Positions 2,320-46,097 of a stretch of 51,977 nt of DNA are shown in pieces. This stretch comes from Pseudomonadota bacterium (GTDB lineage: Bacteria; Pseudomonadota; Gammaproteobacteria; Burkholderiales; Burkholderiaceae_C), in contig JAFEEH010000250.1 of assembly GCA_018241185.1 (NCBI GenBank), positions 1-51,977 of the forward strand, written 5' to 3'. Below the pieces are notes generated by a model, which searched no databases, was not told the origin of the DNA, and saw only the letters and a list, made by a program, of their open reading frames with translations. The stretch's first letter is position 1; the number at the start of each line of letters is the position of its first letter. A program made the position numbers and the translations under genes.

Positions 2320-2356
2320 AAAAAAGGCGTTGCAAGCCAAATCGGCCTGCAACGCC
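2320..2356 (-). terminator. Intrinsic terminator formed with the repeat after the Rieske gene
   Basis: On the minus strand GGCGTTGCA (2356-2348) pairs perfectly with TGCAACGCC (2334-2326) across a 13-base loop, followed by six T (2325-2320). One arm lies inside the dispersed repeat and the other just beyond it, so repeat and flank together form the structure. It would end transcripts of the Rieske gene before the DMT gene. Confidence 0.6.
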
Positions 2357-2392
2357 CGCCGGCCGTGCGCAAGCAGCTATGAATTCGATAGC
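2333..2392 (-). repeat. Dispersed GCTAT-ATAGC repeat, copy 1
   Basis: Read on the minus strand, this copy opens with GCTATCGAATTCATAGC, then TGCTTGCGC, then GGCGGGCG, TGCAGGCCG and TTTGGCTTG. It starts 8 bases after the stop codon of the Rieske gene, in the same orientation. It aligns without gaps over 60 bases to the copies at 13420, 16064, 30081, 36385 and 45270. It is read here as a member of a mobile or multiplied palindromic element family. Confidence 0.85.
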
Positions 2393-2400
2393 AATCGGCC

Positions 2401-3564
2401 TCACCGCCGCACCGCCGCCAGCCGCGCCAGCGCGTCGGGCGAGGCCTGCAGTTCGCGGCGGTACCACTCGTGGAAGTGCTGCATGCCGTCTTCCATCGGG
2501 CTCTGGTAGGGGCCGACCTCGTTGTCACCGCGCTGCAGCAATGCCTTGCGGCCGGCGTCCATGCGCTCGGCGATCTCGTCGTCCTCGATGCAGGTCTCCA
2601 TGTAGGCGGCCTGTTGCGCCTCGACGAATTCGCGCTCGAAGGCGACGATCTCCTCGGGGTAGTAGAACTCGACCATGTTCATGGTCTTGTCCGGCCCCAT
2701 CGGGTGCAGGGTCGAGACGGTGAGCACGTGCGGGTACCACTCGACCATGATGTGCGGGTAGTAGGTCAGCCAGATGGCGCCGTACTCCGGCGGCTTGCCT
2801 TCGCGGTATTTGAGCAACTGCTCGTGCCAGCGCTGGTACACCGGGCTGCCCGCGCGGCCGAGGCGGTTGGCCACGCCCACGGTCTGCACCGAGTAGCGCG
2901 GCTTGAATTCCCACCGCAGGTCGTCGCAGGTCACGAAGTTGCCCAGCCCCGGGTGGAAGGGGCCGACGTGGTAGTCCTCGAGGTAGACCTCGATGAAGGT
3001 CTTCCAGTTGTAGTTGCATTCGTGCATCTCCACCCGGTCGAGCTGGTAGCCGCTGAAGTCGAGCGTGCTGCGCGGGCCCATGTGCGCGAGGTCGGCGGCC
3101 ACGTCCCGGCCGTTCTTCTCGAACAGCAGGCCGTTCCATTCCTGCAGCTCCCAGGTGCGCAGGTTCAGGCAGGGGTCTTCGGCGAAGTGGGGGGCACCGA
3201 GCAGTGTCCCGGTCGGTTGTGGCCCGGCAGCGTTGTAGGTCCAGCGGTGCAGCGGGCACACGATGTGGCCACTGCCGCGGGCATCGAGCGCGCCGCGGCC
3301 TTTCATGATCACGGCCTGCCGGTGGCGGCACACGTTGGACACGAGTTCCACGCCGCGCGGCGTGTGCAGCAGCGCGCGCCCTTCGTGCTCCTGGGGCAGG
3401 GCGTAGAAGTCGCCCGGTTCGGGCACGGCCAGGCGATGGCCGACGTAGCGGGGACCCTTGGCGAAGAAGGTCTCCATCTCGAGCGCATACAGCGCCGGAT
3501 CGAAATACGCGGAAACCGGGAGTTGGCTCGAGGCCTGCTGCAGTTGAAGACTTAAATCAGACAT
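2401..3564 (-). CDS. Rieske-type aromatic ring-hydroxylating oxygenase, alpha subunit
   Basis: The 387-residue protein carries the Rieske [2Fe-2S] motif Cys79-x-His81 ... Cys103-x2-His106. It also carries mononuclear-iron ligands in DYHVGPFH (His199 and His204), the standard bridge of ring-hydroxylating oxygenase alpha subunits. It should hydroxylate or demethylate an aromatic or quaternary-amine substrate in the cytoplasm using electrons from a reductase; no reductase or ferredoxin is adjacent. The start at MSDLSLQLQQ was preferred because the upstream extension is Arg/Pro-rich and unlike the family. The leader has a hairpin at 3690-3709. The substrate is unknown; resemblance to choline or carnitine monooxygenases is possible. 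Confidence 0.85.
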   Translation of the reverse strand: MSDLSLQLQQASSQLPVSAYFDPALYALEMETFFAKGPRYVGHRLAVPEPGDFYALPQEHEGRALLHTPRGVELVSNVCRHRQAVIMKGRGALDARGSGHIVCPLHRWTYNAAGPQPTGTLLGAPHFAEDPCLNLRTWELQEWNGLLFEKNGRDVAADLAHMGPRSTLDFSGYQLDRVEMHECNYNWKTFIEVYLEDYHVGPFHPGLGNFVTCDDLRWEFKPRYSVQTVGVANRLGRAGSPVYQRWHEQLLKYREGKPPEYGAIWLTYYPHIMVEWYPHVLTVSTLHPMGPDKTMNMVEFYYPEEIVAFEREFVEAQQAAYMETCIEDDEIAERMDAGRKALLQRGDNEVGPYQSPMEDGMQHFHEWYRRELQASPDALARLAAVRR

Positions 3565-3681
3565 GGGTGACCTGACCAAGCCCCCCCACAGGGAGGGAAA
3601 AACCAAAATGCCCCGCCTCACTCCTGCGACTGAGCCGACGGCAGCACGTTCATGAAGCGAACGTTGTCGGCATCTCCGCGG

Positions 3682-3709
3682 AAAAAGTTGCGCCGGCGGA
3701 GGCCGGCGC
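3682..3709 (-). promoter_or_regulatory. Hairpin plus T-run in the leader of the Rieske gene
   Basis: A perfect 8-base inverted repeat, GCGCCGGC / GCCGGCGC with a 4-base loop (3690-3709), is followed on the minus strand by AAC and five T (3686-3682). It lies about 120 bases upstream of the Rieske start, in the 230-base space shared with divergent xseB. It could be an attenuator, or the terminator of a short upstream transcript. Confidence 0.35.
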
Positions 3710-3796
3710 GGGGATGAAGCGGGATTGTACCCCGGAGATATCCGCCAGACCCAGCCTGGCCTTCTAGAATGGCCGGTTTTCACCCACGGTCTTTGC

Positions 3797-4980: not shown

Positions 4981-4990
4981 AAATACCCCG

Positions 4991-6847: not shown

Positions 6848-6859
6848 CCCGCGCAGCCG

Positions 6860-8264: not shown

Positions 8265-9347
8265 ATGGATCGTCGTTCCCTTATCAAGAATGCCGGCATG
8301 GCCGGTGTGCTGGCTGCCGGCATAGCACCCGCCGTGCATGCGCAGGCCGCCGTGCGTTGGCGCCTGGCGTCCAGTTTCCCGCGCTCGCTGGACACGATCT
8401 TCGGCAGTGCCGAGATGCTGTCGAAGACCGTCAAGGCGCTGTCCGGTGGCAAATTCGAGATCACCGTCCACCCGGCCGGCGAGCTGATGCCGGCGTTCGG
8501 CGTGGTCGATGCGCTGCAGGGCGACAACATCGAGATGGCCCAAACGGCCGCGTATTACTTCACCGGCAAGGACCCGGTCTTCGCGTTCAGCTGCGCCGTG
8601 CCCTTCGGTCTCACCGCGCGCCAGAACACCGCCTGGAAGGACTACGGCAACGGCCGCAAGCTGCTCGACGCGTTCTTCGCGCAGTACAACTTCCGCACCG
8701 CCAGCGCCGGCAACACCGGCACGCAGATGGGCGGCTGGTACCGCAAGGAAATCAAGACCGTTGCCGACCTCAAGGGCCTGAAGATGCGCATGGGCGGCGG
8801 TGTGTTCGGCGAAGGCATGGCCAAGCTGGGCGTGGTGTCGCAGAACATGCCGGCCGGTGACGTCTACCAGGCGCTGGAAAAGGGCACGCTGGATGCGGCC
8901 GAGTTCGTCGGCCCCTACGACGATGCCAAGCTGGGCTTCAACAAGGTCGCGCCGTACTACTACTACCCCGGCTGGTGGGAAGGCTGCGCCGACCTGGAGT
9001 TCTTCATCAACCTGAAGAAGTTCAACGCGCTGTCGGACGAGAACAAGGCCATCCTGAACGCCGCGATGGCCGTGGCCGCCACCGACATGACCGCCAAGTA
9101 CGACGCCTACAACCCCATCGCGTTGAAAAAGCTGGTGGCCGAAGGCACGAAGCTGGTGGCCTTCCCCAAGGCCGTGATCGACGCGGGCTTCAAGTCGTGC
9201 ATGGAAGTGTTTGCCGAGCACGACGCCAAGTCGCCCGAGTTCAAGAAGATCAACCAGGACATGCGCGCCTTCCAGCGCGACCAGATCCTGTGGAACCGCT
9301 TCTCGGAGTTCCCGTTCAACCAGTACATGAACGGCGTGAAGATCTGA
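8265..9347 (+). CDS. TRAP transporter substrate-binding protein (DctP family)
   Basis: The 360-residue protein starts with DRRSLIKNAG, a twin-arginine-like signal, followed by a hydrophobic stretch ending PAVHAQA. The body is a DctP/TRAP solute receptor (VRWRLASSFPRSLDTIFG; the central TQMGGWYRKEI; a conserved arginine region KGLKMRMGG). It resembles the subgroup annotated for mannitol/chloroaromatic-type acids. A GGAG ribosome site lies 6 bases before the ATG. The dctM and dctQ genes are on the opposite strand and converge on it, so receptor and permease are transcribed separately. Substrate unknown, probably an organic acid. Confidence 0.88.
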   Translation: MDRRSLIKNAGMAGVLAAGIAPAVHAQAAVRWRLASSFPRSLDTIFGSAEMLSKTVKALSGGKFEITVHPAGELMPAFGVVDALQGDNIEMAQTAAYYFTGKDPVFAFSCAVPFGLTARQNTAWKDYGNGRKLLDAFFAQYNFRTASAGNTGTQMGGWYRKEIKTVADLKGLKMRMGGGVFGEGMAKLGVVSQNMPAGDVYQALEKGTLDAAEFVGPYDDAKLGFNKVAPYYYYPGWWEGCADLEFFINLKKFNALSDENKAILNAAMAVAATDMTAKYDAYNPIALKKLVAEGTKLVAFPKAVIDAGFKSCMEVFAEHDAKSPEFKKINQDMRAFQRDQILWNRFSEFPFNQYMNGVKI

Positions 9348-9361
9348 TCTTCAGGTACCCG

Positions 9362-9400
9362 AAAAAAAAGCCCCGCGGCCTGCGCCGCGGGGCTTTTTTT
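9362..9400. terminator. Bidirectional intrinsic terminator between dctP and dctM
   Basis: A 10-base perfect GC stem (GCCCCGCGGC / GCCGCGGGGC, four-base loop, 9370-9393) is flanked by eight A on the left and seven T on the right. It therefore works as a factor-independent terminator for the plus-strand dctP and the converging minus-strand dctM. Confidence 0.92.
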
Positions 9401-9465: not shown

Positions 9466-11319
9466 TCAAGGCTTCTTCTCCTTGAGCGCGTCCTGCATCG
9501 CCTTCATGGGGTCGTCGTCGGCCGCGGCAGGCGCGTCGGGCGTTGCAGCAGGCGCGTCGGGCGCCGGGGCGGGCGCAGCGGACGACGGCGCCGCGCCGCT
9601 GGCGGGCTCGGCGGGCTTCTCGTCGGCGCCGTAGCCGCCATCCGAGCCGTAGCCTTCGCTGCTGCTCTCGGGTTGCAGGCCCTCGCGCATCTGCTCGCCG
9701 ACGGCCTTGAGGTCGTAAGCCTGTGCCTTGTCCAGGTTGCCCGTCACCAGGTTGGGGAACGCGATCATGACGCCGACCATGAACAGCTGGATCAACAGGA
9801 ACGGGATGGCGCCCTTGTAGATCTGCATGGTGGTGACCGGGTCCATCACCTTGTTGGTCACGCGGTCCACGTAAGGCTTGCTGGGCGCCACCGATCGCAG
9901 GAAGAACAGCGCGAAGCCGAAGGGCGGATGCATGAACGAGGTCTGCATGGTCATGGCCAGCAGCACGCCGAACCAGATCAGGTCGATGCCCAGCTTGTGT
10001 GCAACGGGTGCAAGCAGCGGCACGACGATGAACGACAGTTCGAAGTAGTCCAGGAAGAACGCCAGCAGGAACACCAGCAGGTTCACGAAGATCAGGAAGC
10101 CGACCTGACCGCCGGGCAGGCTGGACAGCAGGTGTTCGACCCAGATCGGGCCGTCTGCGGCCTGGAACACCAGGCCGAAGACGGTCGCGCCGATCAGGAT
10201 GAACATCACGAAGCTGCCCAGCTTGGTCGTCGTGGCCAGGGCCTGCTTGAGCAGCGCCATGTTCAGGCGGCGACGCGCGAAGGCCATGACCAGCGCGCCG
10301 ATGGCGCCCATGGCGCCGCCTTCTGTCGGCGTGGCCACGCCCAGGAAGATGGTGCCCAGCACCAGGAAGATCAGCAGCAGCGGGGGAATCAGCACGAAGG
10401 TCACGCGCTCGGCCAGCCGCGACAGCAGGCCCAGGCCGGTCAACTTGTTGGCCAGCGCGATCAGCAGCGCCACGGTGGCGCCGCCGCACATGGCGACCAC
10501 CACCTTCTCGTCGGTGGCGACAGTGGTGACTTGCTCGCCCAGCCACCAGGTGTGCACCTCGGCCATGTGGCGAGCCAGCACGACCGAAACGAGGAAGGAG
10601 ATGACGGTCAGCACCAGCAGCGATGGATAGCCGCCGCTGCCGTTGGCCTCGCGGTAGATCCGCGCTTCCGGCGGCAGGGCTGGCAGGCTCTTGGGCCGGA
10701 AGATGGCCAGGATGGCGATGTAGACCACATAGCAGCCGACCAGCATGAAGGCCGGCACGAAGGCGCCCTTGTACATGTCGCCGACGCTGCGGCCGAGCTG
10801 GTCGGCCATGATGATCAGCACCAGCGAGGGCGGAATGATCTGGGCCAGCGTGCCGGAAGCCGCGATCACCCCGCTGGCGAACTTCCGGTCGTAGCCGTAG
10901 CGCAGCATGATCGGCAGCGAGATCAGGCCCATCGAGATCACGGATGCCGCGACCACGCCGGTGGTGGCCGCCAGCAGCGCGCCCACGAAGACCACGGCCA
11001 GGGCCAGGCCCCCGCGCATGGGGCCGAACACCTGGCCCACGGTGTCGAGCAGATCCTCGGCCATGCCGCTGCGCTCCAGGATCAGTCCCATCAGCGTGAA
11101 GAAGGGCACGGCCAGCAGTGTGTCGTTGGCCATGATGCCGATCAGGCGCTGCGGCAGCCACGCCATGACCGAGGCCGGGAACACGCCGAGCTCGATGCCG
11201 ATGATGCCGAAGGTGAGGCCGCAGGCGCCCAGGCTGAAGGCCACCGGAAAGCCGAGCAGCAGAAAGCAGATCAGCCCCGCGAACATGATCGGGGCGAAGT
11301 TGGCGGTGATGAATTCCAT
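9466..11319 (-). CDS. TRAP transporter large permease (DctM), long form with Ala/Pro tail
   Basis: This 617-residue inner-membrane protein has more than twelve hydrophobic segments with the DctM signatures GFPVAFSLGACGL, FFTLMGLILERSGMAEDLLD and ATPTEGGAMGAIGAL. It is the ion-coupled transport subunit. It is longer than the usual 425-435 residues because of a hydrophobic insertion (about 230-320) and an Ala/Pro/Asp-rich tail (about 550-617) that should be disordered and cytoplasmic. The ATG at 11319 fits the N-terminal helix. The small subunit ends 18 bases upstream, so Q-M is an operon. Confidence 0.9.
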   Translation of the reverse strand: MEFITANFAPIMFAGLICFLLLGFPVAFSLGACGLTFGIIGIELGVFPASVMAWLPQRLIGIMANDTLLAVPFFTLMGLILERSGMAEDLLDTVGQVFGPMRGGLALAVVFVGALLAATTGVVAASVISMGLISLPIMLRYGYDRKFASGVIAASGTLAQIIPPSLVLIIMADQLGRSVGDMYKGAFVPAFMLVGCYVVYIAILAIFRPKSLPALPPEARIYREANGSGGYPSLLVLTVISFLVSVVLARHMAEVHTWWLGEQVTTVATDEKVVVAMCGGATVALLIALANKLTGLGLLSRLAERVTFVLIPPLLLIFLVLGTIFLGVATPTEGGAMGAIGALVMAFARRRLNMALLKQALATTTKLGSFVMFILIGATVFGLVFQAADGPIWVEHLLSSLPGGQVGFLIFVNLLVFLLAFFLDYFELSFIVVPLLAPVAHKLGIDLIWFGVLLAMTMQTSFMHPPFGFALFFLRSVAPSKPYVDRVTNKVMDPVTTMQIYKGAIPFLLIQLFMVGVMIAFPNLVTGNLDKAQAYDLKAVGEQMREGLQPESSSEGYGSDGGYGADEKPAEPASGAAPSSAAPAPAPDAPAATPDAPAAADDDPMKAMQDALKEKKP

Positions 11320-13412: not shown

Positions 13413-13419
13413 CCGATCT

Positions 13420-13479
13420 GCTATTAAATCGATAGCTGCTCGCGCAAGCAGGGCGGGCGCTGCAGCCCGTTTTCTTCTA
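13420..13479 (+). repeat. Dispersed GCTAT-ATAGC repeat, copy 2 (possible terminator)
   Basis: This copy opens GCTATTAAATCGATAGC, then TGCTCGCGCAAGC, GGGCGGGCG, CTGCAGCCCG and TTTTCTTCTA. It begins 7 bases past the EgtB-like stop, same strand. Inside it CGGGC-6-GCCCG followed by TTTTCTT could terminate transcription. It fills most of the 98-base space between the EgtB-like gene and the converging histidine kinase. Confidence 0.85.
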
Positions 13480-13510
13480 AATCGCGCCCAAGGTCGGCGC
13501 GGGCACTTTT

Positions 13511-15955: not shown

Positions 15956-16063
15956 GGCAGGTGAACGGAAGGTTGGCGTGGCACGCGGAGGTCGCGGCGG
16001 ATTATGGGCAGCAGGCCGGCTGCCGGCGTGTCAGCGGAGCCCGCAATCGCATGGGCGGCGGAC

Positions 16064-16123
16064 GCTATCGAAACCATAGCTGCTCACATAGGCTGGACGC
16101 GCGTTGCGGCTGTTTTTTCCTTG
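16064..16123 (+). repeat. Dispersed GCTAT-ATAGC repeat, copy 3
   Basis: This copy opens GCTATCGAAACCATAGC, then TGCTCACATAGGCTGGACG, CGCGTTGCGGCTG, and TTTTTTCCTTG. It lies in the 279-base space between the divergent histidine kinase and SnoaL-like genes, so it is not at a gene end. The rest of this space shows no gene; the open frames across it have no ribosome site or family features. Confidence 0.8.
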
Positions 16124-16234
16124 GAACGTGGATGTGCCGGCCATGACCTGGCACGTCATCGACCGGCGGCGCCCACGCAGCGAGCATTCGCTCACCCCGC
16201 CGCAAGCGGCCCATCCCTTCTTCAGGAGATCGCC

Positions 16235-27297: not shown

Positions 27298-27879
27298 ATG
27301 GACATGCAAGGCACCCGCCAGCTCGGCGTCACCCAGGAACAGGCCTGGGAAGCCCTCAACGACCCGGAGACGCTCAAGGGCTGCCTGCCGGGCTGCGACA
27401 AGTTCGAATCGACCGGCGAGAACCAGTACGCCGTGACGATGGCCGTGAAGGTCGGCCCGGTGTCGGCCAAGTTCAACGGCAAGGTCACGCTCAGCGACAT
27501 CCAGCCGCCCGCGAGCTACAAGCTGGCCTTCGAGGGGCAGGGTGGCGTGGCCGGCTTCGGCAAGGGCGCGTCGGCCGTCTCGCTCACGCCCAACGACGCC
27601 GGCTGCGAGCTCGCCTACACCGTGCAGGCGCAGGTCGGCGGCAAGATCGCGCAGCTGGGCCAGCGCCTGATCGATGGCGCGGCCAAGTCGATGGCCGACG
27701 ACTTCTTCAAGCGCTTCGACGCCGAGATGCAGCGCCGCCACGGCCCGCCGCCGGCCGAGGCAGATGCTATCGAAATGGGAGCGGCTCCCGCGGAGAAGAC
27801 GGGCGCCGTGGCCGGATTCATGCAGAAACTCGGCTTCGGCAAGAAGGACAAGGCCGAGGGCGCGCAGGACGAAGGTTGA
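27298..27879 (+). CDS. coxG: CoxG-like SRPBCC protein
   Basis: The 193-residue protein has a START/SRPBCC fold (about 1-145; MQGTRQLGVTQEQAWEALND, then GCLPGC, FNGKVTLSDIQPPASYKL, FEGQGGVAGFGKG) typical of CoxG, thought to anchor the dehydrogenase to the membrane or carry a quinone. A linker (about 148-172) follows and the C-terminus is a Lys-rich amphipathic helix (GFMQKLGFGKKDK), fitting membrane attachment. The linker is encoded by a stretch resembling the dispersed repeat (27766-27825). AAGGA lies 8 bases before the ATG. Confidence 0.88.
   Translation: MDMQGTRQLGVTQEQAWEALNDPETLKGCLPGCDKFESTGENQYAVTMAVKVGPVSAKFNGKVTLSDIQPPASYKLAFEGQGGVAGFGKGASAVSLTPNDAGCELAYTVQAQVGGKIAQLGQRLIDGAAKSMADDFFKRFDAEMQRRHGPPPAEADAIEMGAAPAEKTGAVAGFMQKLGFGKKDKAEGAQDEG
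27766..27825 (+). repeat. Degenerate, in-frame copy of the GCTAT-ATAGC repeat within coxG
   Basis: This stretch opens GCTATCGAAATGGGAGCGGCT and later shows GGGCG and GGCCG at the expected spacings; it aligns gap-free to copy 1 with roughly half the positions identical, including nine in a row at the start. It encodes CoxG residues 157-176. It is the weakest copy and could be chance in GC-rich coding DNA, except for the AT-rich opening. Confidence 0.5.
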
Positions 27880-29946: not shown

Positions 29947-30080
29947 GGCAAGGTCAGGCGTAGAAGTTACAAGACGTTAACGAACTACGCGCTGCACTGC
30001 AACATAAGGCAAAGGTATCTACCGCCAGGTAGGAAACGTTGGCGCATGGCCGCGCGCCATGCCTTCCGGCCCCGGGAATT

Positions 30081-30140
30081 CGAAGGAAAAGTGGCCTAAA
30101 CGCCCACTGGACGGGCGCGGACAGCTATCGATTCGATAGC
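30081..30140 (-). repeat. Dispersed GCTAT-ATAGC repeat, copy overlapping the mrpG stop
   Basis: On the minus strand it opens GCTATCGAATCGATAGC, a palindrome with one central base, then TGTCCGCGCCCG, GTGGGCG, TTTAGGCC and ACTTTTCCTTCG. The TAG inside ATAGC is the stop codon of mrpG, so the element provides the last codons (Leu-Ser-Asn-Arg-stop). CGCCC-7-GGGCG followed by TTT may also act as terminator. Confidence 0.85.
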
Positions 30141-30523
30141 GCCTCGGTGTCTTCGCTGACCACCTGGGGTGGGCGGTGCGGGCCATGGGCCGGCGGCGGC
30201 ACGTCACCGCCTTTCTGTCGCTCGCGGAACAGCGCCGCGCGCATCAGGAAGATGGTGGTGACCGGCGCCGTGAGCGCGACGAAGAATGCGATCAGCACCG
30301 CGTGCAGAAAGAGCTGGAAACCCTGCACCGAGAAGTACACGATGGTCGCCAGCGAAATCGCCCACACGCCCAGCGTGGCACCGAGCGTCGGCGCATGGAT
30401 GCGATGAAAGAAGGTGGGCAGGCGCACCAGGCCGAACGAGCCGATCGCCGCGAACGCCGCGCCGACGACGACGAGCACGGCCGTGAGCCATTCGGCCCAC
30501 CAGGGCATCGACCCGCCGCTCAT
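30125..30523 (-). CDS. mrpG: Monovalent cation/proton antiporter subunit G
   Basis: The 132-residue membrane protein has three helices in the MrpG/PhaG pattern (WWAEWLTAVLVVVGAAFAAIG, LVRLPTFFHRIHAPTLGATLG, then LTAPVTTIFLMRAALF). The C-terminal tail (about 105-132) is hydrophilic and Pro/His-rich. The last residues and the TAG stop come from the dispersed repeat. It is the last gene of the antiporter operon, 22 bases after mrpF. Subunit G is an accessory membrane component of the complex. Confidence 0.9.
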   Translation of the reverse strand: MSGGSMPWWAEWLTAVLVVVGAAFAAIGSFGLVRLPTFFHRIHAPTLGATLGVWAISLATIVYFSVQGFQLFLHAVLIAFFVALTAPVTTIFLMRAALFRERQKGGDVPPPAHGPHRPPQVVSEDTEALSNR

Positions 30524-33026: not shown

Positions 33027-33367
33027 TCGTCTTTCTCCTCACCGTCGACGTGGTCGGTGTCGGAGATGCCGCGCGAGGCGAGCATCACGACGAGGAAGAG
33101 CGCCGTCATGGCGAAGCCGATCACGATGGCCGTGAGCACCAGCGCCTGCGGCATCGGGTCGGCCGTGTTGGCCAGCGTGGCCTGGAAGCCGGGGAGCAGC
33201 ACCGGCTCGCTGTCGACCTTGAGCCGGCCCATGCTGAACATGAACAGGTTGACCGCGTAGGCGATCAGCGTCAGGCCCATGATGACCTGGAAGGTGCGCG
33301 GGCGCAGCAGCAGGTACACGCCCGAGCCCGTGAGCACGCCGATGGCGATGGCCAGCACGATTTCCAT
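33023..33367 (-). CDS. mrpC: Monovalent cation/proton antiporter subunit C
   Basis: The 114-residue protein has three helices and the NuoK-like core GVYLLLRPRTFQVIMGLTLI, then AVNLFMFSMGRL. Its start overlaps the mrpA stop by one base (TGATG) and its stop overlaps the mrpD start. It is the small NuoK-like subunit of Mrp complexes. Length is normal. Confidence 0.92.
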   Translation of the reverse strand: MEIVLAIAIGVLTGSGVYLLLRPRTFQVIMGLTLIAYAVNLFMFSMGRLKVDSEPVLLPGFQATLANTADPMPQALVLTAIVIGFAMTALFLVVMLASRGISDTDHVDGEEKDE

Positions 33368-36315
33368 CAGGCGTTCGCTCCCACGGCGGCCTCTTCGGCG
33401 GCACGGCGCTCCGCCTCCTTCTCGGCCTGCTCGTCGGCCCAGCGGTGGCTGCGGATCGACTGGTGGGCCAGGGCGGTGAGGATCAGCATGGTGGCGCCCA
33501 GCACCAGTGCGAACACGCCGGTGTCGAAGAACAGGGCGCTGGGCACGTGGAGCTCGCCCAGCACCGGCAGCGTGAGGTGGGCGGTGTGCGTGGTCAGGAA
33601 GGGGTAGCCGAGTGCCACGGCACCACCGCCCGTGGCCAAAGCCAGCAGCAGGCCGATGGCGATCCAGCGGCGCGGATAGATGCGCAGGTGCTCCTCGGTC
33701 CAGGCCGCACCCGAGACGATGAACTGCAGCATCAGCGCCACCGACATCACCAGCCCGGCCACGAAGCCGCCACCCGGCGCGTTGTGGCCGCGCATGAAGA
33801 AGTACACCGACACCAGCGCCGACAGCGGCAGCAGCAGGCGCACCAGCACCGCGGGCACCATCAGGTAGCCGACGGCCGTGTCCTTGGCCAGGCGTGGATT
33901 GACCAGGTCGCTGCTGCCGTCGTCGGGCTGCGCGCGCTGTTGGGGGGGCAGGGCCATGGCCTCGGGCGCCGGGCGGAAGCGCCGCAGCAGCGCGTAGACC
34001 GTGAGCGCCACGATGCCGAGCACCGTGATCTCGCCGAAGGTGTCGAAGCCACGGAAGTCCACCAGCATCACGTTGACGACGTTGGTGCCGCCACCTTCGG
34101 GCAGGGCGCGCTCGAGGAAGAAGGGCGAGATGCTCATCGGGTTGGGCCGGGTCATCATGAACCAGGCCAGGGCCGACATGCCGCCGCCCGCGAGTGCGGC
34201 GATCAGCAGATCGCGTCCGCGGCGGCCCCAGGGGCGCAGGCGCTCGCGCGGCCGCTGGATCTGCGCCTTGCGCATCGGCAGCCAGCGCAGGCCCAGCAGG
34301 ATGAGCAGGGTGGTGACGACCTCGACCACCAGCTGCGTGAGCGCGAGGTCGGGGGCCGAGAACCAGATGTAGGTGATGCAGCTCACCAGGCCCGCGCCCG
34401 AGGCCAGCATGAGCGAGGCCAGGCGATGGAACTTGGCTTGCCACGCTGCGGCGAGCGCGCAGATGCAGCCGATGACCCAGGTCATCGCGAACATGGGCGA
34501 AAAGGGCAGCAGTTCGCGCGTGCCGCGTTCGGCCGGCACGAACCACAGCGAAGCGCCAGCGCCCAGCACGGCGACCAGCACGAGCAGGAAGAGCTGCGGC
34601 TGCAGGCGGCGCGTGCCCAGCAGGCGGCGGCTGCGGCGGCCCGCCTCGGACAGGCGGGCCAGGACGTTCTCGAAGATGCGCTGGCCGTCGAAGCGGTGCA
34701 GCAGCGGGGTGTGCTCCAACCCGCCGGCCTGCCGCCGACGCCGTTGAAGCAGGTAGAGCGCCGCGCCGCCGGCCAGCGCGACGAAGCTCATCACCAGCGG
34801 CAGGTTGAAGCCGTGCCACACCGCGAGGCTGTACTCGGGCAGCGTGCCGCCCACCACCGGCGCCGCAGCGGCCGCGAGGAAGGCCCCGACCGACCACGCC
34901 GGCACCACGCCCACCACCAGGCACACCAGCACCAGCAACTCGACCGGCACGCGCATCCAGTGTGGAGGTTCGTGCGGCGGCTTGGGGACCTCGTTGTTGC
35001 AGGGCGGGCCGAAGAAGACGTCGAACACGAAGCGCGCCGAGTACGCCACGCTGAAGGCGCCCGCCAGCGTCGCCAGGACGGGGAGCGTGTACTCGACCCA
35101 GGGTGCGGCATCCAGGAACACCGTCTCGGCAAAGAACATCTCCTTGGAGAGGAAGCCGTTGAGCAGCGGCACCCCGGCCATCGAGGCGCTGGCGATGATG
35201 GCCAGCGTGCCGGTGATGGGCATGGCGCGCAGCAGGCCGCTGAGCTTGCGGATATCGCGCGTGCCGGTCTCGTGGTCGATGATGCCGGCCGCCATGAACA
35301 GCGAGGCCTTGAAGGTCGCGTGGTTCATGATGTGGAAGACCGCGGCCACGGCGGCCAGGGGGCTGTTCATGCCGAGCAGCAGCGTGATGAGGCCCAGGTG
35401 CGAGATGGTGGAGTAGGCCAGCAGTGCCTTCAGGTCGCGCTGGTACATCGCCACGTACCCGCCCAGCAGCAGCGTGAGTGCGCCGGCGCCACCCACCAGC
35501 CAGAACCATTCCTGCGTGCCCGAGAGCGCCGGCCACAGTCGCGCCATGAGGAACACGCCCAGCTTCACCATGGTGGCCGAGTGCAGGTAGGCCGACACGG
35601 GCGTGGGTGCCGCCATGGCGCGCGGCAGCCAGAAGTGGAAAGGGAACTGCGCGCTTTTGGTGAAGGCGCCCAATAGGATCAGCACCAGCGCCACCGGGTA
35701 GAGCGCATGGGCGCGGATCTCGGCGCCCGAGGCGAGGACCACGTCGAGGTCGTAGCTGCCCACGATGCGGCCCAGCACCAGCACGCCGGCCAGCAGGCAC
35801 AGCCCGCCGGCGCCGGTGACGGTGAGCGCCATGCGGGCGCCGCGCCGCGCATCGCGCCGGTGGTGCCAGTAGCCGATCAGCAGGAAGGAGAACAGGCTGG
35901 TGAGTTCCCAGAACAGCACCATCTGGATCAGGTTGCCCGAGAGCACCACGCCGACCACCGAGCCCATGAAGGCCAGGAAGAAGGCGAAGAAGCGCGGCAC
36001 CGGGTCGGACGCCGACATGTAGTAGCGCGCATAGAGCACCACCAGCGTGCCGATGCCCAGCACCAGCATGCAGAACAGCCAGGCAAAGCCGTCCATGCGG
36101 AAGGACAGGTTCAGGCCGAGTGCCGGGATCCATTCGTAGGTCTGGCGCAGCACGTTGCCATCGGCCAGGCGAGGGAACATCCACGCCACCTGCACCGCGC
36201 CGAACAGGGCCACCACGCCGGCCAGTGTCGATTCCCGGTTGCGGGCGTCGGACGGCAGCGAAGCCGCCAGCACGCTGGCGATGAAGGGAAGTGCGACGAG
36301 AAGGACCAGCGGCAT
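33367..36315 (-). CDS. mrpA: Monovalent cation/proton antiporter subunit A, fused A/B (Pha-type)
   Basis: The 982-residue protein combines an ND5-like antiporter domain (about 1-600; FFAFFLAFMGSVVGVVLSGN, KSAQFPFHFWLPRAMAAPTP, AYLHSATMVKLGVFLMARL) with the MrpA C-terminal region and an MrpB domain (about 800-960; GHNAPGGGFVAGLV). There is no separate mrpB gene, so the operon is A(B)-C-D-E-F-G as in Pha-type K+/H+ antiporters. The start MPLVLLVALPF was chosen because the upstream 24 codons overlap the dispersed repeat. The C-terminus (about 960-982) is a charged helix. Such complexes serve pH and cation homeostasis; which cation is exchanged cannot be read. Confidence 0.92.
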   Translation of the reverse strand: MPLVLLVALPFIASVLAASLPSDARNRESTLAGVVALFGAVQVAWMFPRLADGNVLRQTYEWIPALGLNLSFRMDGFAWLFCMLVLGIGTLVVLYARYYMSASDPVPRFFAFFLAFMGSVVGVVLSGNLIQMVLFWELTSLFSFLLIGYWHHRRDARRGARMALTVTGAGGLCLLAGVLVLGRIVGSYDLDVVLASGAEIRAHALYPVALVLILLGAFTKSAQFPFHFWLPRAMAAPTPVSAYLHSATMVKLGVFLMARLWPALSGTQEWFWLVGGAGALTLLLGGYVAMYQRDLKALLAYSTISHLGLITLLLGMNSPLAAVAAVFHIMNHATFKASLFMAAGIIDHETGTRDIRKLSGLLRAMPITGTLAIIASASMAGVPLLNGFLSKEMFFAETVFLDAAPWVEYTLPVLATLAGAFSVAYSARFVFDVFFGPPCNNEVPKPPHEPPHWMRVPVELLVLVCLVVGVVPAWSVGAFLAAAAAPVVGGTLPEYSLAVWHGFNLPLVMSFVALAGGAALYLLQRRRRQAGGLEHTPLLHRFDGQRIFENVLARLSEAGRRSRRLLGTRRLQPQLFLLVLVAVLGAGASLWFVPAERGTRELLPFSPMFAMTWVIGCICALAAAWQAKFHRLASLMLASGAGLVSCITYIWFSAPDLALTQLVVEVVTTLLILLGLRWLPMRKAQIQRPRERLRPWGRRGRDLLIAALAGGGMSALAWFMMTRPNPMSISPFFLERALPEGGGTNVVNVMLVDFRGFDTFGEITVLGIVALTVYALLRRFRPAPEAMALPPQQRAQPDDGSSDLVNPRLAKDTAVGYLMVPAVLVRLLLPLSALVSVYFFMRGHNAPGGGFVAGLVMSVALMLQFIVSGAAWTEEHLRIYPRRWIAIGLLLALATGGGAVALGYPFLTTHTAHLTLPVLGELHVPSALFFDTGVFALVLGATMLILTALAHQSIRSHRWADEQAEKEAERRAAEEAAVGANA

Positions 36316-36384
36316 CTCGATCGATTCTATCGACCGGCCTTCACGCACCCATTGGAAAAAACCGCAGAAGAGCCGCCGGCTTTT

Positions 36385-36444
36385 CAAGCGAAAAGTGCCC
36401 GGAACGCCCGTCCGGTGGGCGCGAGCAGCTATGAATTCAGGAGC
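36385..36444 (-). repeat. Dispersed GCTAT-ATAGC repeat, copy downstream of crcB
   Basis: On the minus strand it opens GCTCCTGAATTCATAGC, with the left palindrome arm mutated, then TGCTCGCGCCC, ACGGGCG, TTCCGGGC and ACTTTTCGCTTG. It begins 33 bases after the crcB stop in the same orientation, in the 162-base space before mrpA. CTTTTC-4-GAAAAG at its end forms an extra small hairpin. Confidence 0.8.
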
Positions 36445-36477
36445 AGCTTCACGCCCCGTGCGGTCACGAACCTCGGC

Positions 36478-36858
36478 TCAGCTGGACGCGAGCAGTTGCA
36501 CCGTGCGCATGCCCAGCCAGGTCAGCAGCAACGAGCCGGCCAGATGGCTGCCAGCGGTGAGGGCGGCCACGCCGAGGCGTCCCTCCATCAGCATGGTGGT
36601 CACCTCGGCGGAGAAGCTGGAAAAGGTGGTCAGGCCGCCCAGGAAGCCGGTGACGACGGCCAGCCGCCAGGCCGGATCGATGTCCGGCACCAGCGCGAAG
36701 CCCGCCACCGCGATGCCGATGAGGTAGCCGCCGATCAGGTTGGCGGCGAGCGTGCCCCAGGGCATGAATCCGCCCACGCCGAGCCAGAGGGCGAGGCACC
36801 AGCGAGAAAGCGCCCCGATGGAGGCACCGATGCAGATGGCGACGACAGGCAGGAGCAT
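36478..36858 (-). CDS. crcB: Fluoride exporter (Fluc channel)
   Basis: The 126-residue protein has four membrane helices and the CrcB/Fluc signature: GASIGALSRW, GTLAANLIGGYLIG, and GFLGGLTTFSSFS (71-83), which carries the Phe/Ser residues lining the fluoride pore and the central Na+ site. The channel works as an antiparallel dimer that lets toxic cytoplasmic fluoride out. It starts 9 bases after the upstream dctM on the same strand. No fluoride riboswitch is recognisable upstream. Confidence 0.93.
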   Translation of the reverse strand: MLLPVVAICIGASIGALSRWCLALWLGVGGFMPWGTLAANLIGGYLIGIAVAGFALVPDIDPAWRLAVVTGFLGGLTTFSSFSAEVTTMLMEGRLGVAALTAGSHLAGSLLLTWLGMRTVQLLASS

Positions 36859-42108: not shown

Positions 42109-42122
42109 GGGTCGGCAGATGG

Positions 42123-42150: not shown

Positions 42151-42171
42151 CCGGGTACCGCGGGTGGCGGC

Positions 42172-43857
42172 TTACTTGTCGCTGTTGTCCAGCTTGGCGC
42201 GCAGCAAGGCGCCCAGGCTGGTCGTGCCGGCGTTCTCACGGGCCGACTGCTGGCTCAGGCTGGCCATGGCTTCCTGCTGGTCGACCATGTCCTTCTGCTT
42301 GATCGACAGCTGGATGTTGCGGGTCTTGCGATCCACATTCACCACCACGGCCGTGACCTCGTCGCCTTCCTTGAGCACGTTGCGGGCATCTTCCACGCGG
42401 TCGCGGGAGATTTCCGACGCACGCAGGTAGCCGACCACGTCGTTGCCCAGGTCGATCTCGGCGCCGCGCGGGTCCACGGTCTTGACCTTGCCGGTCACGA
42501 TCTGGCCCTTGTCGTTCACCGTCGTGAAGGTGGTGAACGGGTCGCCGTCGAGCTGCTTGATGCCCAGGCTGATGCGCTCGCGGTCGACGTCGACGGCCAG
42601 CACGATCGCTTCGACTTCCTGGCCCTTCTTGTAGTTGCGAACGGCGGTCTCGCCGGCTTCGTTCCACGAGAGGTCGGACAGGTGCACCAGGCCGTCGATG
42701 CCGGCCGCCAGGCCGACGAACACGCCGAAGTCGGTGATCGACTTGATCGGGCCCTTGACGCGGTCGCCGCGCTTGGTGTTCTGCGCGAATTCCTGCCAGG
42801 GGTTGGCCTTGCACTGCTTCATGCCCAGGCTGATGCGGCGCTTGTCTTCGTCGATCTCGAGGACCATGACTTCGACTTCGTCACCCAGCGACACGATCTT
42901 GTTCGGCGCGATGTTCTTGTTGGTCCAGTCCATTTCGGAGACGTGGACCAGGCCCTCGATGCCCGGCTCGAGTTCGACGAACGCGCCGTAGTCGGCGATG
43001 TTCGTGACCTTGCCGAACAGGCGCGTGCCCTGCGGGTAGCGGCGCGAAACGCCCATCCACGGGTCGTCGCCCATCTGCTTGAGACCCAGCGACACGCGGT
43101 TCTTCTCGGTGTCGAACTTGAGGATCTTGGCGGTGATTTCCTGGCCGGCCTGAACGACTTCGCTCGGGTGGCGGACACGGCGCCAGGCCATGTCGGTGAT
43201 GTGCAGCAGGCCGTCGATGCCGCCGAGGTCGACGAACGCACCGTATTCGGTGATGTTCTTGACCACGCCACGGACCACGGCGCCTTCCTTGAGCGTTTCC
43301 ATCAGCTTGGCGCGTTCTTCGCCCATGCTGGCTTCGACCACAGCGCGGCGCGACAGCACGACGTTGTTGCGCTTGCGGTCGAGCTTGATGACCTTGAATT
43401 CGAGGGTCTTGTTCTCGAAGGGGGTCAGGTCCTTGATCGGACGCGTGTCGATCAGCGAACCCGGCAGGAAGGCGCGGATGCCGTTGACCAGCACCGTGAG
43501 GCCGCCCTTGACCTTGCCGCTGGTGGTGCCGGTGACGAATTCGCCGGATTCCAGGGCCTTCTCGAGCGCCAGCCACGAAGCGAGGCGCTTGGCGGTGTCA
43601 CGCGAGAGGATCGTGTCGCCGTAGCCGTTCTCGACGGAGCCGATGGCCACCGACACGAAATCGCCGGCTTGCACTTCGAGTTCGCCCTTGTCGTTCTTGA
43701 ACTCTTCGATCGGCACGTAGGCTTCGGACTTCAGGCCGGCATTGACCACCACGTGGTTGTGCTCGACACGCACCACCTCGGCGGTGATGACCTCGCCTGC
43801 GCGCATCTCGGAACGCTGGAGGGACTCTTCGAAGAGAGCGGCAAAAGATTCAGACAT
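42172..43857 (-). CDS. rpsA: 30S ribosomal protein S1
   Basis: The 561-residue protein contains six S1 RNA-binding domains. The first two bind the ribosome ([40 protein letters not shown]) and the last four bind mRNA, each with a G-x-I/V-x2-I-x-D/E-Y/F-G-x-F-V motif such as [21 protein letters not shown]1 recruits mRNA for initiation. The start MSESFAALF is preceded by AGGAAAC. It follows cmk after a 218-base leader with several hairpins, as in many proteobacteria. Confidence 0.97.
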
Positions 43858-44075
43858 TGAGTTTCCTGTTCCGTCCACCCAGGTTTCCAGCCGCCCATGC
43901 AAGATCGCTTGCGGCTGTTTCTAAGACTGGAGACGGCGGTTTGGGCCACATGGCAGTGACCCCGGTTGGGGTTGAACAACCAGCAGGCCGGTGCGCTGGC
44001 GCGCGAGGAGAACCTGCTGGACCAAGGACCGCCCGGCAGATGTTGTGCCGGAGGCCCGAGCCTTCAACACCTGCC
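43858..44075 (-). promoter_or_regulatory. Structured leader between cmk and rpsA
   Basis: This 218-base stretch has no gene. Close to the rpsA start CAGCCGC and GCGGCTG (43888-43917) enclose a smaller hairpin GCAAG-4-CTTGC. Further upstream CCCC-4-GGGG and CCGGCA-7-TGCCGG occur. In E. coli the rpsA leader is structured and is the target of S1 autoregulation; the same role is inferred here. A promoter for rpsA should also lie in this stretch but no clear -35/-10 pair was found. Confidence 0.45.
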
Positions 44076-46097
44076 TCAGCGGGCGTCGAAAGGCTGCACC
44101 TGCCGCCACCAGGCCAGGACCTGATCCACCGATTGCTCGATGCTCTGGTCGGAGTTGTCCAGGAGGCGGGCGTCTTCGGCGGGCTTCAGCGGCGCGACGC
44201 TGCGGGACGAATCCCTCGCATCACGCGCTTCCAGGTCGGCGCGAAGACTGTCGAGTGTAACCGAAATCCCCTTTGAAATCAACTGCTTATGCCGGCGCTC
44301 GGCACGGTGCGCGGCACTGGCCGTGAGGTAGACCTTCAAGGGGGCGTCGGGGAAGATGACGGTGCCCATGTCGCGCCCGTCCGCCACCAGGCCCGGCAGC
44401 CGGCGGAAGGACAGCTGCAGATCGCGCAGGGCCTCGCGCACCGCCGGCAGCGCCGACACGCGCGACGCGTCCATGCCCGCCGCCTCGGTGCGGATCGCGT
44501 CGGTGATGTCCTCTCCGGCCAGCAGCACCTGCCCGGCGTCGAAGCGCAGGACCAGACCGCGGGCGAGGTCGGCGACCCGGGCTTCGTCGGCGGAATCGGC
44601 TTCCAGCCCCGCACGCCGCATGGCCAGGCCTGCGACCCGGTAGAGCGCGCCGGAGTCGAGGTAGTGATAACCGAGCCGGCGCGCGATCTCGGCCGCGAGC
44701 GTGCCTTTGCCGGACGCGGTGGGTCCGTCCACGCAGATCACCGGCACCTCGGCCGGCTGGACCACCGAGAACAGCACCTCGAAGTAGTCCGGGAAGGTCT
44801 TGCCGACGCATTTCGGGTCGAGGATGCGCACCGGCAGCCGGTCCGGATTGAAGGCCGCGAGTGAGAAGCACATGGCGACCCGGTGGTCGTCGTAGGTGTG
44901 GATGCTGGCACGCCGCCAGTGGCCGTGGGGCAGCGGTTCGATGCGGATGAAGTCCGGGCCGGCCTCGACGGTGGCGCCGAGTTGTCGCAGTTCGGCCGCC
45001 ATGGCATCGATGCGGTCGGTCTCCTTCACGCGCCAACTGGCGATGTTGCGCAGCGTGCTGGGACCGTCGGCGTACAGCGCCATGACGGCGAGCGTCATCG
45101 CGGCGTCGGGGATGTGGTTGGCGTCGATGTCGATGGCGCGCAGCGGCCAGGCGCCGCGCTCGATCTGCAGCCAGTTGGGACCGCTGGTGACCTGCGCGCC
45201 CATCTGCCGTGCGGCATCGACGAAGCGGATGTCGCCCTGGATGGAGTCGGCGCCCACGCCTTCGATCTTCAGGCCATTTTGGCCTGCAGCGCCCGCCGCT
45301 ATTGCGCCGAGCGCTATGAAATAGCTAGCAGAGGAGGCATCCGCCTCCACGTGGATGTCGCCGGGTGACCGGTACTGCGCGCCCGCCGGGATGACGAAGC
45401 GCGACCAGCCGTCGCGCTGGACGTCGATGCCGAATCGTGCGAGCAGGTTGAGCGTGATCTCGATGTACGGCTTGGAGATCAGCTCGCCGATGACGTCGAT
45501 GGTGATGGCGCGTGAGGCCGCAGCCAGGGGCAGCGCGAGCAGAAGCGCCGTGAGGAACTGGCTCGAAACGTCGCCGCGCACGCGGATCGGCGCATCCAAC
45601 TGCAGCGCCGAGGCGGCAACGGGCCGGATACGCAGCGGCGGGTAGCCAGGATTGCCGAGGTATTCGACCTGGCAACCCAGTTGCACCAGCGCGTCGACCA
45701 GATCGCCGATCGGGCGCTCGTGCATGCGCGGCACGCCACGCAGCTCGAAGTCGCCGCCCAGCAGGGCGAGCGCCGCGGTGAGCGGGCGCATGGCCGTGCC
45801 GGCATTGCCGAGGAAGAGCGACAGGGCGCGCTGGCGGACGTCATCGCCCAGGCGGCCGCCGAGGCCCTGGATGCGCAGCACGCCCGCGTCTCGGTGCAGA
45901 CCGCAGCCGAGCGTCGCCAGCGCGTCGAGCATCACGCGCGTGTCGTCCGAGTCGAGCAGGTCATGGACGGTGGTGGTGCCGTGCGCCAGGGCGGCCAGCA
46001 GGAGCACGCGGTTGGAAATGCTCTTGGAGCCCGGCAGGCGGACCGTGCCGCCGGCCGCCACGAGCGGCGGGACGTCGAGGAAAGCGGTGGCGTACAT
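44076..46097 (-). CDS. aroA-cmk: Fused EPSP synthase / cytidylate kinase (AroA-Cmk)
   Basis: One uninterrupted frame of 673 residues encodes EPSP synthase (about 1-448; [10 protein letters not shown] with Lys25, [22 protein letters not shown]) and CMP kinase (about 452-673; Walker [10 protein letters not shown] at 458-466, [19 protein letters not shown]). The link between them, [15 protein letters not shown], is only a few residues. AroA makes 5-enolpyruvylshikimate-3-phosphate for aromatic amino acids; Cmk phosphorylates CMP/dCMP. It starts 2 bases after tyrA. Residues 257-276 are encoded by a copy of the dispersed repeat, with two ATA codons otherwise rare here. Confidence 0.94.
45270..45329 (-). 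repeat. Dispersed GCTAT-ATAGC repeat inside aroA, in frame
   Basis: On the minus strand it reads GCTAGCTATTTCATAGC, then GGCGCA, GCGGCGGGCG, CTGCAGGCC and TGGCCTG. It matches copy 1 at about 45 of 60 positions without gaps. It encodes AroA residues 257-276 (Ala-Ser-Tyr-Phe-Ile-Ala-Leu-Gly ...). CAGGCCA-3-TGGCCTG forms the second palindrome. The phase is the same as in the coxG copy. Confidence 0.75.

What the first reader, a model, noticed from the sequence alone, without database searches (positions are those of the whole stretch)
2333..45329. A roughly 60-base palindromic repeat family, about eight copies in 52 kb
Copies at 2333 (-), 13420 (+), 16064 (+), 27766 (+, weak), 30081 (-), 36385 (-) and 45270 (-) align gap-free in a common orientation: a GCTAT-7-ATAGC palindrome, then TGCT, a GCGC-rich part, GGCGGGCG, GTTGCAGGCC-like bases and a T-rich end. 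The AT-rich opening stands out in this GC-rich DNA. No transposase is present, so it resembles a non-autonomous element moved or copied in trans. I have an impression that similar repeats occur in Comamonadaceae genomes but cannot verify it.
Basis: partly seen in the sequence, partly recalled or inferred. Interest (0 to 1): 0.75.

Follow-up and report, generated by a model that had tools for sequence, protein, structure and literature searches.

The report
REP-like repeats matching a transposase's end
A bacterium related to Xenophilus carries several hundred copies of a 66-base folded DNA repeat, mostly just behind genes; its start matches the end of the genome's single REP-type transposase gene, which suggests that this enzyme once spread it.

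Summary
The repeat is real. Five of the seven listed copies are genuine; the other two (27764, 45266) lie inside genes and align gap-free in relatives that have almost none of these repeats. Genome-wide the core ATAGCTGCTNGCGC occurs 185 times, the reversed pattern 0 times; I estimate about 365 copies. Copies share a 66-column register: a GCTAT-7-ATAGC palindrome, a hairpin whose upper stem covaries between genera, and a weaker GGCC..GGCT hairpin. Copies sit against gene 3' ends, over-represented between convergent genes, in either orientation, and sometimes supply the TAG stop. The family was found only in the window's own family of the order (54 of 200 genomes), patchily even within the genus. 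Copies are old and mostly vertically inherited; one near-consensus copy looks like a recent insertion. The genome holds one RAYT (HuH, Y1_Tnp) gene. The 3' end of such RAYT units carries a block (TTGCTATCAAATTTGAT|RTGTCCCC, with GCTCC and GCTAC variants) resembling the first ~17 bases of the repeat, variants included; in several genera much of an antisense repeat lies between stop codon and block. Best reading: a REP-like, non-autonomous family derived from, and once moved by, this RAYT type. Mobilisation is inferred, not shown. Part of it is in print as an anonymous motif pair (PMC5217627).

The parts
2329..2394 (-). Copy 1, between a Rieske/ring-hydroxylase gene (2401-3477, -) and an EamA transporter gene (1373-2296, -). 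It starts 6 nt after the stop codon.
   Evidence: 81.2 bits; copies in G002 and G010 (80.7 and 70.3 bits), decayed remnant in G008, no element in the aligned spacers of G003, G004, G005, G012; neighbours by Pfam
13418..13483 (+). Copy 2, between convergent genes (FGE-sulfatase-like 12132-13412, +; PAS histidine kinase 13511-15955, -).
   Evidence: 72.2 bits; copies in G002 and G010 (69.9 and 32.0 bits), decayed in G008, none in G003 and G004
16062..16127 (+). Copy 3, between divergent genes (13511-15955, -; 16235-16612, +, SnoaL-like).
   Evidence: 63.9 bits; G010 and G002 have it (46.8 and 29.9 bits), G008 lacks a stretch of about 90 bp that includes it
30077..30142 (-). Copy 4; it supplies the TAG stop codon of the MnhG-like gene 30125-30508 (-).
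   Evidence: 56.6 bits; stop codon 18 nt into the copy; copies in G002 and G010 (67.1 and 43.1 bits), degenerate in G008
36381..36446 (-). Copy 5 (GCTCC variant of the first arm), between a CrcB gene (36478-36858, -) and an Mrp antiporter gene (33367-36315, -).
   Evidence: 72.7 bits; copies in G002, G010 and G008 (68.2, 44.3 and 40.6 bits; alignment)
45266..45331 (-). Look-alike inside the EPSP synthase reading frame; not counted as a copy.
   Evidence: 33.7 bits, but gap-free or codon-wise coding alignment in G003, G004, G005 and G008; Pfam EPSP_synthase
27764..27829 (+). Look-alike inside the predicted gene 27298-27879 (+); not counted as a copy.
   Evidence: 26.0 bits; one unbroken BLAST alignment across the site in each of six relatives

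Best explanation
The repeat is a REP-like, non-autonomous DNA element. SHOWN: it is a 66-column family of several hundred copies confined, as far as searched, to one bacterial family. It abuts gene 3' ends. Its middle hairpin keeps its pairing through changes on both sides. A block at the 3' end of the genome's single RAYT (HuH tyrosine transposase) unit resembles the first ~17 bases of the element, and in several genera much of an antisense copy lies between the RAYT stop codon and that block. INFERRED: the RAYT recognised the GCTAT..ATAGC palindrome and hairpin as single-stranded DNA, as TnpA-REP does its REP, and inserted copies in trans. Copies survived where they did least harm, just behind stop codons. 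In this species most copies are old and now inherited vertically, decaying at different speeds in sister species; rare insertions may still occur.
For: Copy number 185 exact cores against 0 in control; 77 copies above 45 bits in 415,850 bases of own DNA (20 of 21 stretches chosen for density), 39 of them with the exact core, hence about 365 in all. RAYT: one Y1_Tnp gene in the own genome (73.0 bits to NCBIfam REP_Tyr_transpos, cut-off 80), with a 44.3-bit element copy across its stop codon. The block GCT.{8,12}AT.TGTCC follows the RAYT stop in 28 of 41 element-positive and 5 of 41 element-negative genomes, and in 59 of 80 named RAYT loci, 31-45 nt after the stop in 54 of those 59 (the 80 include G002, G008, G010 and a few other genomes of the first set). 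It occurs also in 39 of 53 Variovorax loci, which hold one R2 match in 1.03 Mb, so it belongs to the RAYT unit and was not brought by an inserted element. The same arm variants occur in both: GCTAT/GCTCC/GCTAC 29/14/8 of 59 RAYT ends and 50/5/13 of 76 own elements; GCTCC, which breaks the palindrome, is followed by TG in 9 of 14 and 4 of 5. Antisense element score (cols 6-28, at least 8 bits) next to the RAYT stop: 10 of 41 element-positive, 0 of 41 negative, 0 of 41 on the sense strand of the positives; random windows of the same loci reach 8 in 3 of 82 loci. Location: 33 convergent, 30 co-directional, 6 divergent among 69 intergenic copies; 56 of 63 copies that border a gene 3' end lie within 25 nt of it; 7 of 77 place TAG as stop. 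Covariation: 23 cells changed on both sides against 6.6 in shuffles, 0 of 500 reaching it. Site L137:3271, the copy nearest to consensus of 119, exists only in G000 among seven genomes; G010 has the two convergent stop codons abutting, G005 has 3 bases between them, G004 and G003 short spacers; G002 and G008 have longer, element-free inserts there. Elements in 54 of 200 family genomes; in the order, 2 of 150, both in the same family.
Against: RAYT presence does not discriminate: 45 of 54 element-positive but also 102 of 146 element-negative genomes have a Y1_Tnp match, and 9 of 54 positives have none, some of them rich and complete (G040, G114, G160, G214). Full-length models find an element within about 400 bp of the RAYT in only 4 of 41 element-positive loci, by rough reckoning about what density alone would give. 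A gap-free profile of columns 1-17 on the RAYT 3' flanks separates the groups only weakly (13 of 41 against 6 of 41 above the 99% control level, p = 0.057). On the RAYT tree the block and element presence cannot be separated from descent: 5 independent pairs on supported branches, sign test not significant; on loci fetched after the motif was seen the association is weak (8 of 15 against 5 of 25, p = 0.034). No two of 119 copies exceed 92.4% identity, so recent amplification is not visible. The tag is ATAG, not GTAG, and the RAYT is not flanked by two inverted copies. The RAYT block is 15 nt long in 56 of 59 cases, against 14 for the same span of the element (A7). No target duplication or fixed target sequence was seen at the empty sites read.
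Confidence: 0.58

Rival explanations
1. A mobile or copied element spread by another, unidentified enzyme. The RAYT-end resemblance is partly convergent (both ends are AT-rich palindromes), or reflects RAYT units that landed beside old element copies.
For: Rich genomes without any Y1_Tnp match and many element-free genomes with one; full-length element matches beside the RAYT near what density gives; phylogeny-aware test undecided; gap-free profile of the first 17 columns weak.
Against: The RAYT-end block sits at a near-constant distance from the stop in 54 of 59 named loci and is present in element-poor Variovorax; it shares the non-palindromic GCTCC(TG) variant with the elements.
Confidence: 0.22
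2. A functional 3'-end RNA or terminator element kept by selection: transcribed hairpins that stop transcription or protect mRNA 3' ends between convergent genes.
For: Strong convergent and 3'-end bias; apical stem covaries between genera; at one locus the hairpin stem stays while the loop changes (L133:5914 in G000, G002, G008); of the five window copies, copy 1 overlaps a terminator-like site and one starts at the end of copy 2.
Against: No orientation bias in co-directional gene pairs (16 with, 14 against). The other three window copies have no terminator-like site. Copies decay in G008 and G010 and are near-absent in nine of thirteen species of the genus.
Confidence: 0.13
3. It is the published Betaproteobacterial repeat element (BRE) of Bordetella, Polaromonas and others.
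For: BRE was reported from Polaromonas, Acidovorax, Delftia, Rhodoferax and Verminephrobacter as well as Bordetella, mostly intergenic (PMC3110155).
Against: BRE is mostly 75-91 bp in Bordetella, in tandem arrays of up to 8, with mean GC slightly above the genomes'. This element is 66 columns, closest spacing 928 bp in 415,850 bases, mean GC 0.58 against 0.69 around it. The BRE sequence is not in the text that I could read, and no Bordetella DNA was searched.
Confidence: 0.04

Closest known systems
GTAG-tagged REP elements with RAYT/TnpA-REP (PMC2817692 passages, PMC3733652 sections 15-16)
   Same: Hundreds of short, folded, mostly extragenic repeats; conv/uni placement close to gene 3' ends; they can supply a TAG stop; some lie inside genes; a RAYT gene is present in most carriers; conserved tetranucleotide at the foot of a hairpin with an imperfect stem.
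   Different: Tag reads ATAG; 66 columns instead of 20-40 bp; three hairpins; no dimers or clusters seen; RAYT not bounded by two inverted copies.
TIRYT / TIRtron units with GGGGWSAS inverted repeats (PMC3733652, section 16 read)
   Same: The RAYT 3' flank here carries GGGGACAC and, about 50 nt on, GGGGTCAG-type motifs; GGGTCAGA lies downstream in 72 of 82 RAYT loci and on both sides in 39 of 82.
   Different: In the own genome and G002, G008, G010 no such motif was found upstream. The dispersed repeat is not the GGGGWSAS repeat itself but the block and hairpin just inside it. The held text of that paper names none of Acidovorax, Delftia, Polaromonas or Variovorax.
Motif pair GCTTAT(N)5AAGCG of Acidovorax ebreus TPSY (PMC5217627, section 13 read)
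   Same: Its reverse complement CGCTT(N)5ATAAGC is the apical hairpin in AT-richer genera: present in 7 of the 29 other-genus copies of alignment A7, 0 of its 11 own copies. 114 copies, 107 intergenic, 44 convergent and 4 divergent: the same placement.
   Different: Reported there only as an anonymous motif pair of unknown role; no full element, no RAYT link, no comparison between species. The A. ebreus genome itself was not searched here.
Betaproteobacterial repeat element, BRE (PMC3110155, section 14 read)
   Same: Mostly intergenic repeat in Betaproteobacteria, unknown function, mobile features.
   Different: Longer, tandem, GC-rich; letters not compared.

Membership tests
REP (GTAG or CGTC super-families) | High-copy, mostly extragenic palindromic repeat | tested here: met
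   185 exact cores, about 365 estimated; of 77 copies above 45 bits 69 intergenic, 5 inside predicted genes, 3 at contig edges
REP (GTAG or CGTC super-families) | Unpaired GTAG or CGTC tag at one end | tested here: not met
   The tetranucleotide is mostly ATAG; G at its first position in 3% of 119 copies, part of which were chosen by the exact ATAG core; 4 of 76 model-found own copies and 13 of 51 G010 copies have G there
REP (GTAG or CGTC super-families) | Located near gene 3' ends, conv and uni rather than div; TAG sometimes used as stop | tested here: met
   33/30/6 conv/co/div of 69; 56 of 63 within 25 nt of a 3' end; 7 of 77 supply the stop
REP with RAYT (REPtron) | A RAYT gene in the genome | tested here: met
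   One in the own genome; 45 of 54 element-positive and 102 of 146 element-negative family genomes have a Y1_Tnp match
REP with RAYT (REPtron) | RAYT gene flanked by two copies in inverted orientation | tested here: not met
   Related sequence on the 3' side only: block in 28 of 41, antisense score at least 8 bits in 10 of 41; a full copy on the 5' side in L220 and L224 only
REP / BIME / REPIN | Copies arranged in dimers or clusters | tested here: not met
   Closest spacing 928 bp among the 77 copies in 415,850 bases
REP with RAYT (REPtron) | RAYT binds and cleaves the repeat as single-stranded DNA | not testable with these tools
   Needs protein
TIRYT unit (for the RAYT, not the repeat) | GGGGWSAS inverted repeats on both sides of the transposase gene | tested here: inconclusive
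   GGGGWSAS both sides in 38 of 82 RAYT loci, downstream only in 28; in the own genome and its three nearest relatives downstream only
BRE | 75-91 bp unit, tandem arrays, GC above genome mean | tested here: not met
   66 columns, no tandem copies; GC at most 0.68, mean 0.58, against 0.69 in the stretches. BRE letters not available
Known RNA family (Rfam 15) | Score at or above a family's gathering threshold | tested here: not met
   0 matches in the window; none at the copies at E up to 5

The most novel reading that the evidence does not exclude
Single-copy RAYTs of Comamonadaceae, of the kind bounded by GGGGWSAS repeats, generate a genome-wide population of 66-base elements that are copies of the transposase unit's own inner right end: an ATAG-tagged counterpart of the REP/RAYT system, gained and lost repeatedly within one family.
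Probability: 0.4. Interest if true: 0.6.

Novelty: new variant of a known kind. Interest (0 to 1): 0.5.

Why it matters
RAYTs are persistent HuH enzymes whose benefit to the host is, to my knowledge, an open question. For Betaproteobacteria, PMC2817692 reports one REP/RAYT case with Pseudomonas-like REPs (Thauera; passage seen). A large, patchy repeat family whose start resembles the RAYT unit's own right end gives another system in which RAYT function and the birth, spread and decay of REP-like repeats can be compared between sister species with many, few and no copies (exact cores: own 185, G002 90, G010 66, G008 7, nine others of the genus 0-2). It also offers an explanation for an anonymous motif pair published for Acidovorax, and warns annotators of gene ends that use the element's TAG.

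Tried and rejected
Rfam: nothing at the copies. The plasmid collection held no match to copy 1. First RAYT test with full-length models (later 94): few hits, and I had written RAYT off; reading the flanks showed the shared block that a full-length model misses. HP1 as a covarying helix: not supported, since GCTCC..GGAGC compensations are absent or nearly so and HP1 has one both-side change in 200 cells. In one search the slid control of -2 columns also gives 22 cells changed on both sides (23 observed), but with 32% pairing against 87% and a covariation score of 0.047 against 0.152. Within this genome alone covariation was not significant. Strand-specific G.T wobble in the hairpin: seen in other genera (22 against 1) but not in G000 (27 against 23) or G010 (9 against 15), so not used. 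A separate GCTCCTG family dispersed in Variovorax: not found. PMC5217627's second motif pair, ATAGCT(N)22CAAAAG of Polaromonas naphthalenivorans: no match in any fetched locus, so I do not claim it. Replication-strand bias: not tested. In one search the element's 12- to 19-mers hit 3 papers, 2 listed: an integron primer (passage seen) and a wheat data set (listing only), neither about this element. Other literature searches. Papers: PMC3110155 section 14 and passages, PMC5217627 section 13 and passages, PMC3733652 sections 15-16 and passages, PMC2817692, PMC2791841 and PMC2267715 passages, PMC12306157 a term search that returned no passage; all others search listings only.
Full report
WHAT IS THERE. 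The listed copies were extracted and aligned. A covariance model (R1) from 34 copies, five of them from the window, scores five window sites at 56.6-81.2 bits and two at 33.7 and 26.0. The two weak ones lie inside genes: 45266 in EPSP synthase, a coding alignment in G003, G004, G005 and G008; 27764 in a predicted gene, continuous in six relatives. They are look-alikes. The core ATAGCTGCTNGCGC occurs 185 times in the genome (5.34 Mb, 269 contigs), the reversed pattern 0 times. The R1 search of the own genome lists 150 matches, the number scored, all at E below 1e-12. In 415,850 bases of own DNA (the window plus 20 stretches chosen for density) 77 matches exceed 45 bits and 39 of them hold the exact core, giving about 365 copies genome-wide.

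ANATOMY. Consensus from 119 own copies: TTGCTATCGAATTGATAGCTGCTCGCGCCCGCCGGACGGGCGCTGCAGGCCGATTTGGCTTGAAAA; CT of the first arm and TAGC of the second are 100% (part of this set was chosen by the exact core). The copies of other genera that were read keep the same 66 columns without a gap, but their apical stem mostly reads GCGCTTG with CAAGCGC or CGGGCGC where this genome has GCGCCCG..CGGGCGC or mismatched forms. On 40 copies (29 of other genera, 11 own) 23 cells have changes on both sides against 6.6 in shuffles, 0 of 500 reaching it; 87% of cells pair, against at most 41% when partners are slid, though one slid control (-2) has 22 both-side cells. RNAalifold alone predicts only the apical helix. 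The GCTAT..ATAGC palindrome shows one compensatory change in 200 cells; its commonest departures, GCTCC and GCTAC, are unpaired. That suits a sequence read by a protein better than a helix kept for its own sake.

WHERE COPIES SIT. With a simple codon-usage gene finder written for this (401 genes in 415,850 bases), the 77 copies above 45 bits fall: 33 between convergent genes, 16 and 14 in co-directional gaps (with and against the genes), 6 between divergent genes, 5 inside genes, 3 at contig edges. Adjacent gene pairs are 72 convergent, 74 divergent, 234 co-directional. Convergent gaps are over-used (33 of 69 against 24% of intergenic bases, p = 3e-5) and divergent ones avoided (6 of 69 against 32%, p = 7e-6); of 63 copies that border a gene 3' end 56 are within 25 nt of it; orientation is neutral. 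In 7 of 77 the gene's stop codon is the TAG of the element's ATAGC. This is the pattern described for REPs (PMC3733652 section 15).

AGE AND MOVEMENT. Exact cores in the genus: own 185, G002 90, G010 66, G008 7, nine other species 0-2. At the five window sites G002 and G010 have copies; G008 has one weak copy (36381, 40.6 bits), decayed remnants at three and lacks about 90 bp at 16062; G003, G004, G005 and G012, where they could be aligned, have none. Of 127 own elements (look-alikes and weak ones included) tested against 854 kb of G010, 24 had orthologous flanks; of these 2 are empty in G010 (L137:3271, L133:5914), 2 align only over their first part (L141:2601, L147:14002), 3 are the coding look-alikes or a 31.7-bit coding match, and the rest are occupied in both, some degenerate. 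L133:5914 is present in G002 and as a remnant in G008, so G010 lost it. L137:3271, 95% identical to consensus and the best of 119, exists only in G000 among seven genomes: in G010 the convergent stop codons abut, in G005 three bases lie between them, G004 and G003 have short spacers, and G002 and G008 hold inserts of 833 and 543 bp without an R1 match. It is best read as a recent insertion, though loss elsewhere is not excluded. No two of 119 copies exceed 92.4% identity, mean 69%. So: an old burst, vertical decay, little recent movement.

DISTRIBUTION. R1 at E up to 1e-6 finds the family in 54 of 200 genomes of the window's family, 43 of 141 genera (strict filters, at most 26 matches scored per genome). 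R2, built from 40 copies of several genera, at E up to 1e-5 over 150 genomes of the order finds 2, both in that family (strict filters). In named loci (80 kept of 540 RAYT relatives) R2 hits lie in Acidovorax, Extensimonas, Polaromonas, Simplicispira, Ramlibacter, Xenophilus and unnamed Comamonadaceae or Burkholderiaceae, and once in Variovorax.

THE RAYT LINK. The genome has one Y1_Tnp gene (G000:C107:4047-4373; ORF L066:1171-1866), 73.0 bits to NCBIfam REP_Tyr_transpos with a cut-off of 80. A 44.3-bit element lies antisense across its stop codon. Full-length models found an element within about 400 bp of few other RAYTs (4 of 41 element-positive in all). Reading the flanks showed why: in many, after the stop come about 40 nt with a hairpin, then TTGCTATCAAATTTGAT, then RTGTCCCC, and some 50 nt on GGAATCTGACCCC. 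The first 17 letters are the start of the element with one more base in the loop; read the other way, ATCAAATTTGATAGC plus hairpin is the element's body, nearly complete in G000, G002, G010, G139, G140, G165 and G055 by eye, and by a profile of columns 6-28 at 8 bits or more in 10 of 41 element-positive and 0 of 41 element-negative genomes. The composite block is present in 28 of 41 positives and 5 of 41 negatives; on loci fetched after the motif was seen, 8 of 15 against 5 of 25. A gap-free profile of columns 1-17 does worse: 13 of 41 against 6 of 41. The block is present in 59 of 80 named RAYT loci, including 39 of 53 from element-poor Variovorax, at 31-45 nt from the stop in 54 of 59, with GCTAT, GCTCC and GCTAC forms, the forms found in the elements. 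So the block belongs to the RAYT unit, and the dispersed elements look like copies of that unit's inner right end. The unit's downstream GGGGTCAG- and GGGGACAC-type motifs fit the GGGGWSAS terminal repeats of 'TIRYT' genes (PMC3733652 section 16), but an upstream partner was found in only about half of 82 loci and not in the own genome.

LIMITS. RAYT is common with or without elements: 45 of 54 element-positive, 102 of 146 element-negative genomes. On the RAYT tree (82 rows) element and block cannot be told from shared descent (5 independent pairs). Nothing here shows cleavage, binding or transposition. Genomes called element-negative may hold divergent copies below the threshold.

KNOWN OR NEW. 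PMC5217627 (section 13) lists GCTTAT(N)5AAGCG in Acidovorax ebreus: 114 copies, 107 intergenic, 44 convergent, 4 divergent. Its reverse complement is this element's apical hairpin in 7 of the 29 other-genus copies. It is given there as a potential novel motif without explanation. I found no description of the whole element or of a RAYT link (searches, in an open-licence library only). BRE (PMC3110155) differs in length, GC and tandem habit; its letters were not available. I file the repeat as a new variant of the REP/RAYT kind, not as a GTAG REP: the tag, the flanking pair and the clustering were tested and not met.

Noticed in passing
window 9361-9400: A symmetrical GC-rich hairpin with an A-run before and a T-run after (letters), between convergent genes 8265-9347 and 9466-11319: probably a bidirectional intrinsic terminator; Rfam leader models hit it weakly below threshold.
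   Followed up: partly
window 44076-46097: One predicted reading frame of 673 aa carries a full EPSP synthase domain and a full cytidylate kinase domain: an apparent aroA-cmk fusion.
   Followed up: no
window 2325-2357 (-) and 13482-13502 (+): Terminator-like sites overlap the 3' third of copy 1 (15-bp stem plus T-run) and start at the end of copy 2; none at the other three window copies.
   Followed up: partly
L263 and L265, site orthologous to L137:3271: The same gap between convergent genes holds an 82-bp element insertion in G000 and other inserts of 833 and 543 bp in G002 and G008: a possible insertion hot spot.
   Followed up: no
L147:7033-7098 and L140:211-276: Well-scoring copies (53.6 and 72.4 bits) lie antisense inside predicted genes; the first is conserved in G010. 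A possible protein-coding use of the element, or a gene-finder error.
   Followed up: partly
RAYT loci L339-L418, stretch between stop codon and block: Variovorax RAYT units carry varied sequences, often hairpins, in place of the element's hairpin; over 57 named RAYT spacers (Variovorax and others) the median folding z was -0.9 against -0.1 in random windows.
   Followed up: partly
G035:C1: One family genome (4.3 Mb, one contig) has 20 Y1_Tnp matches, several with the same score: an apparent IS200-type expansion beside many elements.
   Followed up: no
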